Below are positions 20,271 through 27,162 of a stretch of DNA of 64,000 bases, piece after piece. A program made the translations under genes and the position numbers. The stretch spans positions 6,725,001 to 6,789,000 of the forward strand of contig NZ_JAZHRU010000001.1 of NCBI RefSeq assembly GCF_036924525.1, written 5' to 3'. Source of the DNA: Bradyrhizobium sp. AZCC 1719 (GTDB taxonomy: Bacteria; Pseudomonadota; Alphaproteobacteria; Rhizobiales; Xanthobacteraceae). The notes beneath the pieces were generated by a model. That model made no database searches, was not told the DNA's origin, and saw only the letters and a program-made list of their open reading frames with translations. Every line of letters starts with the position of its first letter. Within the stretch, counting starts at the first letter, position 1.

Positions 20271-21737
20271 TCACGAATACTGCATCACGCCATCATCGAC
20301 CTTGCCATAGCGGAGCGTGACGATGTCGAGCGCGTAGTTCTGGTACAGCCGCCACGGCCGCTTCGAGCCCTGCTTGGGCAATTTGGCGATCGAGCGCTGC
20401 ACATAGCCGGAGGAGAAATCCAGCGACGGCAGTTCGGTGACCGACGGATCGACATTATGCGGCATGCACTGCTTGTAGCCCTTGCGGTCCATATAGTTGA
20501 TGAGCCGGCAGACATATTCGCAGGTCAGATCGCATTTTAACGTCCACGACGCGTTGGTGTAGCCGAACGCCGCGGCCAGATTCGGAATGTCCGAATACAT
20601 CATGCCCTTGTAGTTCAGCGTTCGCGCGAAATCGACCGTGCGGCCGTCGACGCTGACTTCGAGCCCGCCGAGCACCTGCAGAACCAGCCCGGTCGCGGTG
20701 ACAATGATATTGGCCTCAAGCTCGCTGCCGTCCTTCAGCTTGATGCCGCTCCTGGTAAAAGTGTCGATCTCGTTGGTGACGACGGAGGCGCGCTTGTCGC
20801 GGATCGACTTGAACAGATCACCGTCCGGCACCAGGCAGAGCCGCTGCTCCCACGGATTGTAGCGCGGCGTAAAGTGCTTTCCGACATCGTATTCCGGCCC
20901 CAGCGCCATCTTGACGCCGCCGAGGATCAACTGCTTGGCGCGCTCGGGCTTGCGGCGGCAGAGCTGAAAGAAATACATGCCGAACAGCACGTTGCGCCAG
21001 CGGATCAGGTGATAGGCGAGCTTGGCGGAGAGCTTCTGGCGCAGCTTGTTGGCGAGCGCATCTTCGGCCGGCCGCGCCACCACGTAGGTCGGCGAACGCT
21101 GCAGCATCGTGACGTGCGCAGCGGTCTTGGCCATCTCCGGCACCAGCGTCACGGCGGTCGCGCCCGAGCCGATCACCACCACGCGTTTTCCCGCATAGTC
21201 GAGGTCGTCGGGCCACTTTTGCGGATGTACGATCTGGCCGGCGAAGTCCGCCGTGCCCGAAAACTCCGGCGTGTAGCCTTCCTCGTATTTGTAATAGCCC
21301 GAGCACATGAACAAGAAATTGCAGGTGAAGCGCACGGTCTCCGCCGCGCCCTCGCCGACGTTGCGTTCGGCCTCCACCGTCCAGCGCGACTCTGGCGACG
21401 ACCACGAGGCGCGTTTGACGCGGTGCTGGAAGCGGACGTGCTTGTCGATGCCGTTGTCGGCAGCGGTCTCGCGAACGTAGTTCAGGATCCGCGGCCCGTC
21501 CGCGATCGCCTTCGGCTCGGTCCACGGCCGGAACGAATAGCCGAGCGTGTACATGTCCGAGTCGGAGCGGATGCCGGGATAGCGGAAGAGATCCCAGGTG
21601 CCGCCGATGCAGTCGCGCCCCTCCAGGATCACGTAGCTCTTGCCCGGGCACTTCTCCTGCAAGTGATACCCCGCGCCGATGCCGGAAAGGCCGGCACCGA
21701 CAATCAGGACGTCGAAATGTTCGTTGTGCGTTTCCAT
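20271..21737 (-). CDS. Flavin-dependent monooxygenase, Baeyer-Villiger (EthA-like) type
   Basis: A 488-residue flavoprotein with an N-terminal FAD motif D-V-L-I-V-G-A-G-L-S-G-I-G-A, a second Rossmann motif V-V-V-I-G-S-G-A-T-A-V-T for NADPH, and between them F-A-G-Q-I-V-H-P-Q-K-W-P, which fits the Baeyer-Villiger fingerprint FxGxxxHxxxWP. The segment G-G-T-W-D-L-F-R-Y-P-G-I-R-S-D-S-D is also typical. It would insert oxygen next to a ketone or oxidise sulfur/nitrogen; the substrate is unknown. Closest in style to the EthA group rather than cyclohexanone monooxygenase. It is a single gene. Confidence 0.88.
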   Translation of the reverse strand: METHNEHFDVLIVGAGLSGIGAGYHLQEKCPGKSYVILEGRDCIGGTWDLFRYPGIRSDSDMYTLGYSFRPWTEPKAIADGPRILNYVRETAADNGIDKHVRFQHRVKRASWSSPESRWTVEAERNVGEGAAETVRFTCNFLFMCSGYYKYEEGYTPEFSGTADFAGQIVHPQKWPDDLDYAGKRVVVIGSGATAVTLVPEMAKTAAHVTMLQRSPTYVVARPAEDALANKLRQKLSAKLAYHLIRWRNVLFGMYFFQLCRRKPERAKQLILGGVKMALGPEYDVGKHFTPRYNPWEQRLCLVPDGDLFKSIRDKRASVVTNEIDTFTRSGIKLKDGSELEANIIVTATGLVLQVLGGLEVSVDGRTVDFARTLNYKGMMYSDIPNLAAAFGYTNASWTLKCDLTCEYVCRLINYMDRKGYKQCMPHNVDPSVTELPSLDFSSGYVQRSIAKLPKQGSKRPWRLYQNYALDIVTLRYGKVDDGVMQYS

Positions 21738-21818: not shown

Positions 21819-24008
21819 TCAGGCGACAGTCCGCAAGTGTGGCACGATCGGTTGGCTGCTGGGCTGCGCGTTCATATTATCCGCCAGCCGTGCACGGAAT
21901 GTTGGATATCGCAATGCTTCGAGCGGGGAAAGCTTCGCCAGATCGTAAAGCGGTTCGCGCAGCCAAGCTTCCCTTTCCTGCTGCTCTTTCGGCACGTAGT
22001 CCGGCAGCTTCCTCAGCGTCAAGCTGTCCCACAATTCCTGCCGCCTATAGAGCAACACCGAGACGGCAAAGACGCCAGCCATCGCTGCCCACATCAAGCT
22101 CGCCAACAGCGCGTTCGGCCATTGCCGATGAACCGCATTGACGAGGGTCACGTAGTTCTGCAGAGCAGCGAATGTCGGCTTCAGATTCTTGATCTGCCCC
22201 TGCAGGTTATACAGGTTTGGCAGCACATCGCCCTTGAACGGTATGGTCTTCAAATATTCGCCGAGTTCGCAGCCAGGCTTGAAGAGGCGTCGACCGCCTC
22301 CCAGGTCGCCCATGCTGTCGCACTCCGCCACGATCGCAGCCAGCGTTTCTGGCTGGTAGGTGCGGTTGACGATATTCGACTTCACCTCGTGCAACTTAGC
22401 GTCCAGATTATGAATGGCCGTCTGCGAGGCGGACTTGTGGAACCAGTTATCGTCCTCCCTGTTTGCTGCACTCGAGGCGCTGATATTGTTGAGGCTGGTG
22501 ATGGCAGATTCGACGTATTGCAGCGGCGTGCTGTTCACGATGGTGTAATCCGACGGCCAGTACAGCACGAATGCAAAAACGAAAGCGATGGCCGAATAGA
22601 TCCCGCCAGCATAGAGCACTGTCCTGAACAGTTCGGATGGATTTGTCCGGTACCCCACCCTCGCGGCGACCGCCTCCCTCGTCGGCGTCGAAGTCGCAGC
22701 CCAGCGCATCAACAGTTGAAACAGCAGGGTCGACGGAAGCGCCATGCCGAACGCCATCAGAAGCATCGCATAGAACCGCCCGCTTCCGCCCTGGTGAATA
22801 GCGAATGCCACAAGCGACGAAACAATTGTAACGACGATCGTGGTAACAATCGTGCAGCGGATGATGACATCCGAACTGTATTTCCAGTCGCCGCTCGCGA
22901 GCTGCTTCTCGCGCCAGCGGGTAACGAAAAACGCCGTGAGCAGAAATACGAGGAAGGCCAGCGTGAGGTGCCATTTCTGCTCGATCGACTCATCATGAAA
23001 CTGCATCGACCGGATTTTCAGCGCAATGAGGAAGACCGACGCCGTTGCTCCGAGATAGAACATCAGCTGAAACATGAATGTTGCGGACGACCGTGGCGCG
23101 GGTGTGCTGACATTGAGTTTGAGCGATCTCAGCTTGGCATTGACGGCCGTTTCGTTTTCGCACGCACGCCACAGGATCGATGCGAGGAATACCGCGAGCG
23201 CATTCTTGAACGCGTCGATCTTCCGGGCCGTACCTTCATCGGGGTCGCCACGATCCAATTCCTTGGCCAGCGCGTCACGCTGGTCGCGCACGAAGCCAAA
23301 CGCGCGCTCGTTCTCCGGTTGCCTCATCACCGGTTTGAACTGATCATCGCGATCACGCAGCAATTCCAGCCGCGAATAGAGAAACTTGGCGCGAATCCAG
23401 TTCTGCCTGGAGCCCTCCTGATTGTCTTGCACCAGGCTCAGCGTTGCCGGGGAGAACTCCCCAGCAGCCCGCAGCTCTTCATCCGCAAGAGGAAAGCTCC
23501 CGTCGAGCGCGACCGAGAGGTTGGTCACGGCATAGGGAATATAGGCCGCTTCATGGGCAATCGACCGCAACCACCCTTCCATCCGGCCGAGATATTTGTT
23601 GTCGTCCCGGCTTCCGATCAAGGTGATGATGGAGGTCGCCGCAAGCGGCCAGACCGAATTATCGATCTTGCTGTCCGAACTGCCGGGAAGGAAGGACAGG
23701 ATCGGCGCAATCGCGGTCGGGCCGATCGCCAAAAGAATGAAATAGAAGCCCAGCATCAGAGCAATATAGATTCCCAAACCCTTCATGTATCTCGAATGAG
23801 AGGTCAATGACTCCGGAGCAAGCTCGATGAATTCGCCGATTGTCGTCTTGGCGTAAGTGGGCACCTTGTAGTGATCAGTCGAGAAAACAACCACCACGAG
23901 GACGCCAAACAGGAACGACGCAATCTGCGGTCCAGTGATCTGCTGAACGAGAGGGACATACTGCGTCCACTCGCACAAGGTGGAAAGAAAAGCGGGGCAT
24001 TGCGTCAT
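21819..24008 (-). CDS. Large multi-pass membrane protein, third gene of the putative RiPP operon
   Basis: I do not recognise this 729-residue protein. Hydrophobic spans lie near residues 26-44, 77-98, 312-332, 347-364, 384-404, 412-434, 464-483 and 633-654, so about eight membrane helices. Two large soluble parts lie between them: about 99-311, with a Trp/Arg/Glu-rich helical section, and about 484-632, with the only close cysteine pair (C563, C580). There is no ATP-binding cassette, peptidase or RND signature. It starts 29 bases after the stop of the radical SAM gene on the same strand, so the two are probably cotranscribed. Export, immunity or sensing of the modified peptide are all possible; none is shown. 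Confidence 0.75.
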   Translation of the reverse strand: MTQCPAFLSTLCEWTQYVPLVQQITGPQIASFLFGVLVVVVFSTDHYKVPTYAKTTIGEFIELAPESLTSHSRYMKGLGIYIALMLGFYFILLAIGPTAIAPILSFLPGSSDSKIDNSVWPLAATSIITLIGSRDDNKYLGRMEGWLRSIAHEAAYIPYAVTNLSVALDGSFPLADEELRAAGEFSPATLSLVQDNQEGSRQNWIRAKFLYSRLELLRDRDDQFKPVMRQPENERAFGFVRDQRDALAKELDRGDPDEGTARKIDAFKNALAVFLASILWRACENETAVNAKLRSLKLNVSTPAPRSSATFMFQLMFYLGATASVFLIALKIRSMQFHDESIEQKWHLTLAFLVFLLTAFFVTRWREKQLASGDWKYSSDVIIRCTIVTTIVVTIVSSLVAFAIHQGGSGRFYAMLLMAFGMALPSTLLFQLLMRWAATSTPTREAVAARVGYRTNPSELFRTVLYAGGIYSAIAFVFAFVLYWPSDYTIVNSTPLQYVESAITSLNNISASSAANREDDNWFHKSASQTAIHNLDAKLHEVKSNIVNRTYQPETLAAIVAECDSMGDLGGGRRLFKPGCELGEYLKTIPFKGDVLPNLYNLQGQIKNLKPTFAALQNYVTLVNAVHRQWPNALLASLMWAAMAGVFAVSVLLYRRQELWDSLTLRKLPDYVPKEQQEREAWLREPLYDLAKLSPLEALRYPTFRARLADNMNAQPSSQPIVPHLRTVA

Positions 24009-24037
24009 CGTAGCCCTCCATCGAAAATAACTTTCGG

Positions 24038-25192
24038 CTAAGCGTGCTGCTCTGCGAAAAATCTCGGACTGGAAATAAACTGGTCCTCAGGCCTCTGCCG
24101 CGCCCAATGAACAAATTTGCGGAAGGCCTCGGCCGCCGGTTGCACGGACAACCTGCAGAATTCGGTCTCGGCCGACTCCAGCGAGCCGTTTTCCTGCATC
24201 TTGTTCGAGGGAGCACCGCCGCCGCAAACCGCAAAGTATCGACAGCGCGCCCGGCAGAGATCAACGCCCTTGCGGATTTCCGCCTGAGTGCGGGCTACAA
24301 GAGCGCTGGCAAAAATCCGGTCGAAATCATCAGTCAGAATGTTTCCGAAATTGAAATTGCGATGTGCCTGCGAACGCACTTCCATGAATTCCGGCGAGAA
24401 CGTCGTCACATCGCCGTTTGCCGCAACGACCAGCACCTGCCAGGCATCGATCTGCTCGTTATGCAGCTCGCCGCCGGCAAGGATGCTGGCCATCCGTTCG
24501 ACCTCCTTGATGTGAAGCGGATACCGCTCGGTATAGGCGCGCTTGAGCAAGCCAAGCAGGAATTCAGCGCTCCCCTGCCTCTGATCCTTTCCGTTGAACG
24601 AACTAGAGGCATGACAGCCTTCTGCCTCGTCGATCGAGAAGGACACGTGGGTAATTCCGTTATCGCGATAGAACTCGAAATATTCGTCGACCGCCTGCAA
24701 CGAAAGCGGATGGAGAACGGTGACCACTTTGGGACTGATGCGCGCGGCCTGCAGCTCACGCAGCGTTTGCATGACGAGCGACCAGGTCCCTTTGCCGCTC
24801 TTGGTCTTCCTGCGCGAATCGTGAAACGCCTGCGGCCCATCTATCGACAGCCCGATCCGGGTCTCGGTTTCCTTCAGGAACGGGATCCAGTCCCGTCCCA
24901 GCGCAATTCCGTTGGACTGGACCGTGAAGCTCGCATCCGTGGGCGCGGTCCGGCGCAGTTCGGAGTATGCCCGACGGTACCAAGAGACGGGAACGACCGT
25001 CGGCTCACCAGCATGCCAGATGATGGCAGGCGCGGCGTCTGGAGAAATGCGCGGAAGGACCTTGTCGCGGATGGCGCTCAGCACTCCGGCGCTCATGACC
25101 GATCGATTGTCCCGGCCGCGCAGATAGCAGTAATCGCAACTGATGTTACAGAAGGGCGTCGGTTGCAGCACAATGAGGACGGGTCGCCACAT
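24038..25192 (-). CDS. grrM: Radical SAM/SPASM peptide maturase, GrrM/OscB-like
   Basis: A 384-residue radical SAM enzyme. The N-terminus L-V-L/I-V-L-Q-P-T-P-F-C-N precedes the 4Fe-4S motif C15-x3-C19-x2-C22. Then come W-H-A-G-E-P-T-V-V-P and G-L-S-I-D-G-P-Q-A-F-H-D, the usual landmarks of SPASM peptide maturases. The C-terminal SPASM domain has cysteines near 313, 317, 323 and 346, with C-G-G-G-A-P-S-N-K-M-Q-E-N-G-S-L. These features match the GrrM/OscB group, which forms three-residue cyclophane links between an aromatic side chain and the beta carbon two residues later. Its ATG is three bases after the stop of a small secreted peptide gene, the presumed substrate. Family placement is good; activity is inference. 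Confidence 0.85.
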   Translation of the reverse strand: MWRPVLIVLQPTPFCNISCDYCYLRGRDNRSVMSAGVLSAIRDKVLPRISPDAAPAIIWHAGEPTVVPVSWYRRAYSELRRTAPTDASFTVQSNGIALGRDWIPFLKETETRIGLSIDGPQAFHDSRRKTKSGKGTWSLVMQTLRELQAARISPKVVTVLHPLSLQAVDEYFEFYRDNGITHVSFSIDEAEGCHASSSFNGKDQRQGSAEFLLGLLKRAYTERYPLHIKEVERMASILAGGELHNEQIDAWQVLVVAANGDVTTFSPEFMEVRSQAHRNFNFGNILTDDFDRIFASALVARTQAEIRKGVDLCRARCRYFAVCGGGAPSNKMQENGSLESAETEFCRLSVQPAAEAFRKFVHWARQRPEDQFISSPRFFAEQHA

Positions 25193-25195
25193 CGC

Positions 25196-25444
25196 TCAAC
25201 ACCTTCGCCAAACCCCACTGAAGCAGTTGAAGAAATTGGCCCACTGCGACAATTGGATCCGGCTCGGCTCCGCGCTGCTCTCTGTTCCGCCGGACGCATC
25301 CGGATAGCTGCGCAACGTATCTGCGAGACTGCCAGAACGGAAAAATTCTGCCGGATTTGTGTCGATCGGCGCATCCGCGTGCACCGAACTGGACGCAGTC
25401 GCGAGAACGAAGGCCAAAGGCCAAACTTCCTTAAGGCTCGACAT
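25196..25444 (-). CDS. Putative secreted RiPP precursor peptide
   Basis: An 82-residue peptide starting at ATG 25444, six bases after GGAGG. Residues 1-23 form a signal peptide (W-P-L-A-F-V-L-A-T-A-S-S-S-V-H-A). The middle is polar, with G-G-T-E-S-S-A-E-P as a possible spacer. The last 15 residues are very different: W68-A-N70, F71-F-N73, C74, F75-S-G, then W79-R-R81 and C82. These fit the aromatic-X-Asn/Arg triplets that three-residue cyclophane-forming radical SAM enzymes modify, and the two cysteines could add a disulfide. The stop is three bases before the maturase start. It lacks the long Gly-rich repeats of classical GrrA, so it may be a distinct precursor class. Confidence 0.65.
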   Translation of the reverse strand: MSSLKEVWPLAFVLATASSSVHADAPIDTNPAEFFRSGSLADTLRSYPDASGGTESSAEPSRIQLSQWANFFNCFSGVWRRC

Positions 25445-25558
25445 CTTAGTCCTCCAGCCAGGACTTACGTACACAACCTTAGAGTTTACGACTATGAAAT
25501 GCATCTACTCCCAAAACTTCGGCTGCCATGTAATCCAGTTCACATATCTGAAATAAAA

Positions 25559-25580
25559 CGGCCCCGGAATTCCGGGGCCG
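25559..25580 (-). terminator. Intrinsic terminator downstream of ahcY
   Basis: A perfect 22-base palindrome with arms cggccccggaa / ttccggggccg. On the minus strand it is followed by ttttattt, as expected for termination of ahcY transcription. Confidence 0.8.
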
Positions 25581-25609: not shown

Positions 25610-27043
<1,434 letters not shown>

Positions 27044-27066
27044 GGGGAGTTTCCCTCTGTTGAGCT

Positions 27067-27162
27067 CGTCATTCCGGGGCGCGCGTGAGCCACGAACCCG
27101 GAATCTCGAAATCATGGAAAAAGATTCCGGGTTCACCGCTATCGCGGTGCCCCGGAATGATG
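27067..27162. repeat. Palindromic repeat (CATTCCGGGG family) between metK and ahcY
   Basis: Begins cgtcattccgggg, ends gccccggaatgatg, with inner arms gaacccggaatct / agattccgggttc. It sits between two genes likely transcribed together and could act as an mRNA hairpin. Confidence 0.88.

What the first reader, a model, noticed from the sequence alone, without database searches (positions are those of the whole stretch)
21819..25444. Putative cyclophane RiPP operon with an unusual precursor
Three same-strand genes are nearly contiguous: an 82-residue secreted peptide, a GrrM/OscB-like radical SAM/SPASM enzyme three bases later, and a 729-residue membrane protein 29 bases after that. The peptide's last 15 residues contain W-A-N, F-F-N and W-R-R, matching the aromatic-X-Asn/Arg triplets of three-residue cyclophane maturases, plus two cysteines. 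Classical GrrA precursors are long and Gly-rich, so this short core looks like a different type. The precursor assignment rests on motif and position only.
Basis: partly seen in the sequence, partly recalled or inferred. Interest (0 to 1): 0.88.

Follow-up and report, generated by a model that had tools for sequence, protein, structure and literature searches.

The report
Cys-capped cyclophane peptide operon, Bradyrhizobium
A soil bacterium carries a small gene cassette that probably makes a tiny exported peptide with carbon-carbon cross-links and two conserved cysteines, next to an undescribed membrane protein; related peptide and membrane-protein pairs occur in other genomes without the cross-linking enzyme, so the pair may be the core of the system.

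Summary
The trio (precursor 25444-25196, GrrM/OscB-type radical SAM enzyme 25192-24038, membrane protein 24008-21819, minus strand) is a discrete cassette between ahcY and a flavin monooxygenase gene, which are direct neighbours in 7 of 7 tested relatives with no trio there. The precursor and its 20 homologues all end W-x-N-F-x-N-C-F-x-G-V-W-R-[RK]-C; the middle residues of the first two triplets vary, the linked positions do not. WxN and FxN are triplets OscB is reported to cross-link (PMC11002830 passages). The triceptide reading is therefore well supported but chemically untested; the odd core is a Cys-capped subtype. New here: the membrane protein belongs to an unnamed superfamily found beside 13 of 37 GrrM-like loci, all with Cys-capped or single-triplet precursors, and beside none of the other 24. 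In 5 further genomes a member follows a secreted Cys-loop peptide with no GrrM-like enzyme in the genome. The superfamily's C-terminus weakly resembles the ParS/MbcA antitoxin domain; for the window's own protein this is at background level. I propose that peptide plus membrane partner is the core and the cyclophane maturase an add-on.

The parts
25196..25444 (-). precursor peptide, 82 aa: Sec-type signal (about 1-23, by eye), spacer, invariant Q67, core WANFFNCFSGVWRRC (68-82)
   Evidence: no Pfam or NCBIfam match at E<=1
24038..25192 (-). radical SAM peptide maturase, GrrM/OscB family, 384 aa
   Evidence: TIGR04261 4.9e-93, 312 bits over cut-off 310; C15/C19/C22 and C313/C317/C323/C346 in 33 of 33 aligned proteins
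21819..24008 (-). polytopic membrane protein, 729 aa; 8 hydrophobic segments; C-terminal 674-700 very weakly ParS/MbcA-like
   Evidence: tail: (window itself E 0.021, at background)
25559..25580 (-). intrinsic-terminator-like hairpin behind ahcY, suggesting that the trio is a separate transcription unit
   Evidence: 9 pairs, all G-C, then TTTTATTT (the scan found 3 such sites where shuffles give 4.2 on average, so it rests on stem strength and place); no sigma-70-type promoter match on this strand
25610..27136 (-). ahcY (adenosylhomocysteinase), upstream boundary of the cassette, not part of it
   Evidence: directly followed by the FMO gene in 7 of 7 relatives without a trio here
20271..21737 (-). 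flavin monooxygenase-like gene, downstream boundary of the cassette, not part of it

Best explanation
The cassette makes a short exported triceptide-type RiPP and its own membrane partner. The GrrM/OscB-type enzyme, in the cytosol, joins W68 to the beta carbon of N70 and F71 to that of N73, and perhaps W79 to R81 (inferred from motif and family; about 0.8 for the first two, 0.5 for the third). The Sec-type signal then exports the peptide (inferred), C74 and C82 form a disulfide loop around the third triplet in the periplasm (inferred, 0.6), and cleavage near the invariant Q67 releases a roughly 15-residue core (inferred, 0.5). The core acts on the adjacent membrane protein, most likely as its ligand, which relays binding to the cytosol, possibly through its ParS/MbcA-like C-terminal segment (0.4; immunity protein and exporter are the rivals). 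The linkage of peptide and membrane protein is shown by conserved gene order; the direction of action is inferred.
For: Enzyme family. OscB-reported Trp-x-Asn/Asp and Phe-x-Asn linkages (PMC11002830 passages) match WxN and FxN. In 21 proteins W68, N70, F71, N73 and W79 never vary; residue 69 is A, S or F, 72 is F, S or A, 81 is R or K. In L025, L030, L045 and L046 the last triplet is W-R-N. Membrane superfamily beside 13 of 37 enzyme loci: all 9 Cys-capped and all 4 single-triplet (QWRN) ones, 0 of the other 24. Without the enzyme: 5 of 7 further membrane loci have a secreted peptide ending in a Cys loop just upstream, and none of those 5 genomes has a GrrM-like enzyme at E<=1e-10. Empty sites and lower G+C (57.7% against 62.2%) indicate one discrete unit that was gained or lost.
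Against: No chemistry can be shown from sequence. The enzyme passes its family cut-off by only 2 bits; its SPASM domain is below Pfam's cut-off (19.3 against 21.5). WRR is not among the OscB products named in the passages read, and L044 of the Cys-capped group lacks that Trp. Two loci with short Cys-bearing cores, L040 and L042, have no superfamily member, so short core and membrane protein are not strictly coupled. The 13 positive loci form three clades, so they are about three observations. Window's own membrane protein has no PF09722 match at E<=1 and scores 0.021 with my antitoxin profile, like the best shuffled control (0.023). No RES toxin in 3 of 11 carrier genomes. 2 of 7 enzyme-less membrane loci (G181, G068) have no such peptide upstream.
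Confidence: 0.6

Rival explanations
1. Secreted antibacterial triceptide (bacteriocin-like) with the membrane protein as self-immunity.
For: Compact cassette with presence/absence between near-identical genomes is typical of such loci; peptide and membrane protein diverge together (window against L030 type: 25% identity over 424 residues of the membrane protein).
Against: Immunity proteins of 590-800 aa with large soluble parts are unusual (general knowledge); the enzyme-less peptides keep RC[FY]NG[RK]C[YF] at the end in 119 of the 120 best of 146 homologues (the search picks candidates by shared five-letter words, which favours identical motifs), unlike fast-diversifying bacteriocins.
Confidence: 0.25
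2. The membrane protein is a dedicated transporter or processing protein for the peptide.
For: Polytopic, next to the peptide gene in all 13 Cys-capped or QWRN loci.
Against: No ATPase, protease or known transporter family match over a cut-off; the peptide already has a Sec-type signal; the other 24 enzyme loci, with repeat-type and other precursors, lack the protein.
Confidence: 0.15
3. Membrane-tethered antitoxin: the C-terminal ParS/MbcA-like domain holds a RES-type toxin and the peptide releases it.
For: Weak, position-consistent matches: PF09722 in 13 of 26 window-type members at E<=1 (best 5.3e-4) and 7 of 15 superfamily members at E<=0.1 (best 3.5e-5); NCBIfam ParS antitoxin 1e-5 for L044, 1 of 5 scanned; three DUF2384 antitoxins among 8 PDB matches (0.018, 0.021, 0.32). 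The superfamily profile picks up antitoxins at its C-terminal positions only in 13 family genomes; 5 of the 15 such loci were scanned and all 5 are PF09722 proteins over the cut-off.
Against: RES absent from 3 of 11 genomes, including two close trio carriers G263 and G251; window's own tail is at background level; the window-type profile alone finds no DUF2384 structure.
Confidence: 0.12
4. The peptide is not a RiPP; the conserved aromatic and Asn residues are a structural tail of a small secreted protein and the enzyme modifies something else.
For: Modification untested.
Against: Gene order, constant linked positions with free middle residues, and pairing of enzyme with triplet peptides in 29 of 33 loci.
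Confidence: 0.07

Closest known systems
Triceptides / OscA-OscB (three-residue cyclophane RiPPs; OscB is given as IPR026357 in PMC11002830; TIGR04261)
   Same: Enzyme family; WxN and FxN triplets; enzyme directly downstream of precursor
   Different: Core is short with a fixed N-C...C end and a W-R-[RKN] triplet; large membrane-protein partner
GrrA-GrrM (Gly-rich repeat) systems; L054 and L055 look like this type
   Same: Same enzyme family, F-x-N motifs
   Different: Those precursors carry FRNGG-type repeats and what look like twin-arginine signals, and have no such membrane protein
XncB-type (Xye) triceptides
   Same: Trp to Arg or Asn linkage is reported for XncB
   Different: Enzyme is far from XyeB (45.5 bits against cut-off 450)
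Xre/MbcA/ParS (DUF2384) antitoxin C-terminal domain
   Same: Weak C-terminal similarity of the membrane superfamily
   Different: Membrane bound, no HTH match; no RES partner required

Membership tests
GrrM/OscB maturase (TIGR04261) | score over curated cut-off | tested here: met
   312 against 310 bits; margin thin
GrrM/OscB maturase (TIGR04261) | CX3CX2C radical SAM motif | tested here: met
   C15, C19, C22 in 33 of 33; PF04055 57.6 bits over 29.5
GrrM/OscB maturase (TIGR04261) | SPASM auxiliary-cluster domain | tested here: inconclusive
   PF13186 19.3 bits under cut-off 21.5; four further Cys conserved in 33 of 33
Triceptide precursor | C-terminal aromatic-x-Asn (or Asp, Arg) triplets next to a 3-CyFE-type gene | tested here: met
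Triceptide | C-C bond between aromatic ring of residue i and beta carbon of i+2 | not testable with these tools
   needs mass spectrometry and NMR
GrrA precursor | long Gly-rich repeats | tested here: not met
   one Gly in the 15-residue core; no NCBIfam match at E<=1
Xre/MbcA/ParS_C domain (PF09722) | match over Pfam gathering score | tested here: not met
   window protein: none at E<=1; three relatives with scores shown, 20.2, 14.7 and 15.5 bits, are under 24.5; the best member (3.5e-5) had no score shown
Xre/MbcA/ParS_C domain (PF09722) | RES-type toxin in the same genome | tested here: not met
   8 of 11 carrier genomes have RES, the window's own among them; 3 have none

The most novel reading that the evidence does not exclude
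A previously unnamed two-gene module, a secreted micro-peptide ending in a Cys loop plus a polytopic membrane protein with an antitoxin-like cytosolic tail, is a peptide-sensing or peptide-immunity system of Alphaproteobacteria; a cyclophane maturase sits between the two genes in some lineages, turning a plain disulfide peptide into a cross-linked one, and the cassette moves between genomes as a unit.
Probability: 0.5. Interest if true: 0.78.

Novelty: new variant of a known kind. Interest (0 to 1): 0.64.

Why it matters
What triceptides do for their makers is largely open (general knowledge). A short, invariant core with a constant, co-inherited membrane partner, and natural versions with and without the maturase, gives a direct way to ask what the cyclophane adds and what the peptide binds. 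It also points to a peptide family and a membrane-protein family for which the members scanned here have no Pfam or NCBIfam match over a cut-off.

Tried and rejected
Chance motif in a spurious ORF: rejected by 20 further homologues and low nonsynonymous change in the core. FMO gene as a fourth operon member: rejected, it follows ahcY directly in 7 of 7 relatives without the trio there. Plasmid-borne relatives of the membrane protein: none for two queries. Defence-system assignment: the four membrane proteins scanned have no PADLOC match; the enzyme's weak viperin match I take as the shared radical SAM fold. The protein next to L042 is a TPR protein and was wrongly put into alignments A3 and A7, so the comparison is not used; it was repeated without it. 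Single origin of the Cys cap: not decided; window type plus L025/L030 form one clade (100/100), L044-L046 another, and the tree's backbone is unresolved. The genome search profile counts are lower bounds: one search missed six genus carriers (G020, G041, G050, G065, G091, G183) seen. The GrrM loci of plasmids were not tested for the membrane superfamily.

Papers: PMC11002830 and PMC12204516 were read only as found passages; Nguyen 2020 and Sugiyama 2022 were seen only as entries of a reference list, and the latter may already list these Bradyrhizobium precursors. No paper on this subtype or membrane family was seen in the listings; several of these listings were capped (14: 20 of 27; 15: 30 of 535; 56: 10 of 24; 81: 10 of 6,145).

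Full report
OBSERVATION. The three ORFs are exactly where described, on the minus strand, with gaps of 3 and 29 bases. The precursor ATG at 25444 has a GGAGG ending 6 bases upstream, and every protein of alignment A1 except the shortened P0019 and the extended P0018 starts at the same place.

THE PRECURSOR IS REAL AND ITS END IS THE POINT. The precursor search gave 21 proteins including the window's own. In all 21, Q67, W68, N70, F71, N73, C74, F75, G77, V78, W79, R80 and C82 are the same; 69 is A/S/F, 72 is F/S/A, 76 is S/T/N, 81 is R/K. This is the pattern expected if positions i and i+2 of the first two triplets are linked and the middle one is free; in the third triplet the middle R80 is also fixed. 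Nonsynonymous change is 3.4- to 4.6-fold lower in the last 18 codons than in the rest for the five more distant of six genomic pairs, with similar or slightly lower synonymous change.

THE ENZYME. TIGR04261 (GrrM/OscB) is the best match, 312 bits against cut-off 310; the next, AmcB, is far below its own cut-off (236.4 against 425). It is the only strong match in its genome; two others have E 5.4e-8 and 3.6e-4. Counting the window's own, relatives at E<=1e-40 occur in 21 of 265 genus genomes, at 1e-50 in 23 of 391 family genomes (12 of these 23 are of the genus), and, with the L025 enzyme as query at 1e-60, in 5 of 385 class genomes. A review states that OscB joins Trp to Asn or Asp and Phe to Asn at i and i+2, and XncB Trp to Arg or Asn (PMC11002830, passages). 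WAN and FFN fit OscB; WRR is outside the OscB products named there, so the third link is less sure.

PRECURSOR TYPES. Among 37 distinct enzyme loci (33 in the tree; left out: L039, L052, L053, L063), precursors fall, by labels of mine, into: Cys-capped (window, L027-L029, L025, L030, L044-L046; nine), a single C-terminal QWRN or QWRNR triplet (L033, L035, L037, L050), two with other Cys-bearing ends (L040, L042), and the rest, mostly long repeats such as FPNFPNF, WHNWNNW or FRNGG. Among the 33 tree loci a triplet peptide was seen by eye in 29; not found for L036, L043, L057, L062. Eight of the nine Cys-capped ones have N-C-(7 residues)-C with W-R-[RKN] before the last Cys; L044 ends NCMRGRC and lacks the Trp.

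THE MEMBRANE PROTEIN IS NOT A BYSTANDER. Window-type proteins (34 matches among the 8000 best candidates) have no Pfam or NCBIfam family over a cut-off. The proteins beside L044-L046 and L033/L035/L037 look unrelated by eye but are homologous: the window-type profile matches the L033 type at 4e-24 to 1e-20 in the full-length copies, the L044 type at 8e-5 to 6e-7 (the L046 copy was not listed at 1e-4, its shorter duplicate L023 was), and the enzyme-less type at 3e-10 to 6e-15. Profile-profile comparisons link all three through the enzyme-less type (A2-A6 3.5e-20, A4-A6 1.9e-27, A5-A6 3.3e-17; A2-A4 was 1.5e-7 and A4-A5 only 7e-4 with probability 11). The superfamily lies beside 13 of 13 Cys-capped or QWRN loci and 0 of the 24 others, L040 and L042 included (the window's own protein is part of the query). 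The 13 fall into three clades of the enzyme tree, so this is about three observations rather than thirteen.

PAIRS WITHOUT THE ENZYME. Searches with membrane profiles (8 of 265 genus genomes; 11 of 391 family genomes with the membrane part, 13 more only at the C-terminal positions 575-646; 3 of 270 class genomes, namely the window's own, G635 and G643) gave seven loci without an adjacent GrrM-like enzyme: G194, G185, G223, G181, G068, G635, G643. Five have a small secreted peptide directly upstream, ending VVAQGRCFNGRCY (G194 and, from another family of the class, G635), TVAQGRCFNGKCY (G185), VLAQTGCSSRSGCR (G223) and VAQSTCSGSQRC (G643); for G181 and G068 none was seen. None of the five genomes has a GrrM-like enzyme at E<=1e-10; G068 has one weak match (5e-19) on another contig. 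A profile of these peptides finds 146 proteins, of which the best 120 are listed; in 120 of 120 a Gln stands before the Cys loop, 119 have C-x4-C, 119 end RC[FY]NG[RK]C[YF] and 115 AQGRC[FY]NG[RK]C[YF], with the caveat that the search picks candidates by shared five-letter words. The same [VLI]-x-Q or AQ precedes many of the cyclophane cores, suggesting a common processing or recognition point (inference).

THE C-TERMINAL TAIL. PF09722 matches 13 of 26 window-type members at E<=1 and 7 of 15 superfamily members at E<=0.1; the three scores shown are under its cut-off. NCBIfam's ParS antitoxin model gives 1e-5 (25.6 bits, cut-off 90) for L044, 1 of 5 scanned. The hits that cover only positions 575-646 of the superfamily profile are antitoxins: 5 of 15 such loci were scanned and 5 of 5 are PF09722 plus Xre-HTH proteins. 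A profile of the 15 hits 35 of 36 membrane proteins near the C-terminus (the missing one, from L047, is cut off), from 8.7e-7 for L071 to 1.9 for L030; the window's own (0.021) is like the best of 20 shuffled sets (0.023). Three DUF2384 antitoxin structures are among the eight PDB matches of the superfamily profile, none with the window-type profile. So the tail is probable for the superfamily and only suggestive for the window. RES toxins are missing from 3 of 11 carrier genomes, so a fixed RES partner is excluded.

A DISCRETE CASSETTE. A strong hairpin lies between ahcY and the trio. In seven of seven genomes without a trio at this place ahcY and the FMO gene are direct neighbours. G236 is 96.8% and 95.8% identical in DNA on the two sides and has about 210 bp where the window has the trio. 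The trio has 57.7% G+C against 62.2% for the window; 3.6-kb stretches of the window range from 57.2 to 65.9%. Gain and loss cannot be told apart from this.

VERDICT. Likely a new subtype of triceptide whose distinguishing features are the Cys cap and the membrane partner, within a broader peptide plus membrane-protein module. Shown: gene order, conservation, co-occurrence, enzyme-less pairs, empty site. Inferred: cross-links, disulfide, cleavage, export, and what the membrane protein does.

Noticed in passing
L033 and L035 upstream of the enzyme, L037:7978-8223, L050:1033-1281: Secreted precursors with a single C-terminal triplet (..KKIAQWRN..KIAQWRNR), very small triceptide-like cores, also followed by the membrane superfamily (L050's membrane gene is split between two frames).
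   Followed up: partly
L054 and L055: FRNGG-repeat precursors whose N-termini (..RRSLLR..) look, by eye, like twin-arginine signals rather than Sec signals.
   Followed up: no
L041:5823-6617 and L036:6458-7276: GrrM-like enzymes beside a tetrapyrrole-methylase family protein (PF00590 matched for L041; L036 judged similar by eye).
   Followed up: no
L042:6980-8836: A TPR-repeat protein overlaps the end of the enzyme gene where other loci have the membrane superfamily.
   Followed up: no
G643:C9:57701-58359 (L104, L110): ParS-type antitoxin followed by a RES toxin in a genome that also carries an enzyme-less peptide and membrane-protein pair on another contig.
   Followed up: partly
window 25444-25559: No sigma-70-type promoter match between the ahcY hairpin and the precursor; the trio's promoter is unidentified.
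   Followed up: no
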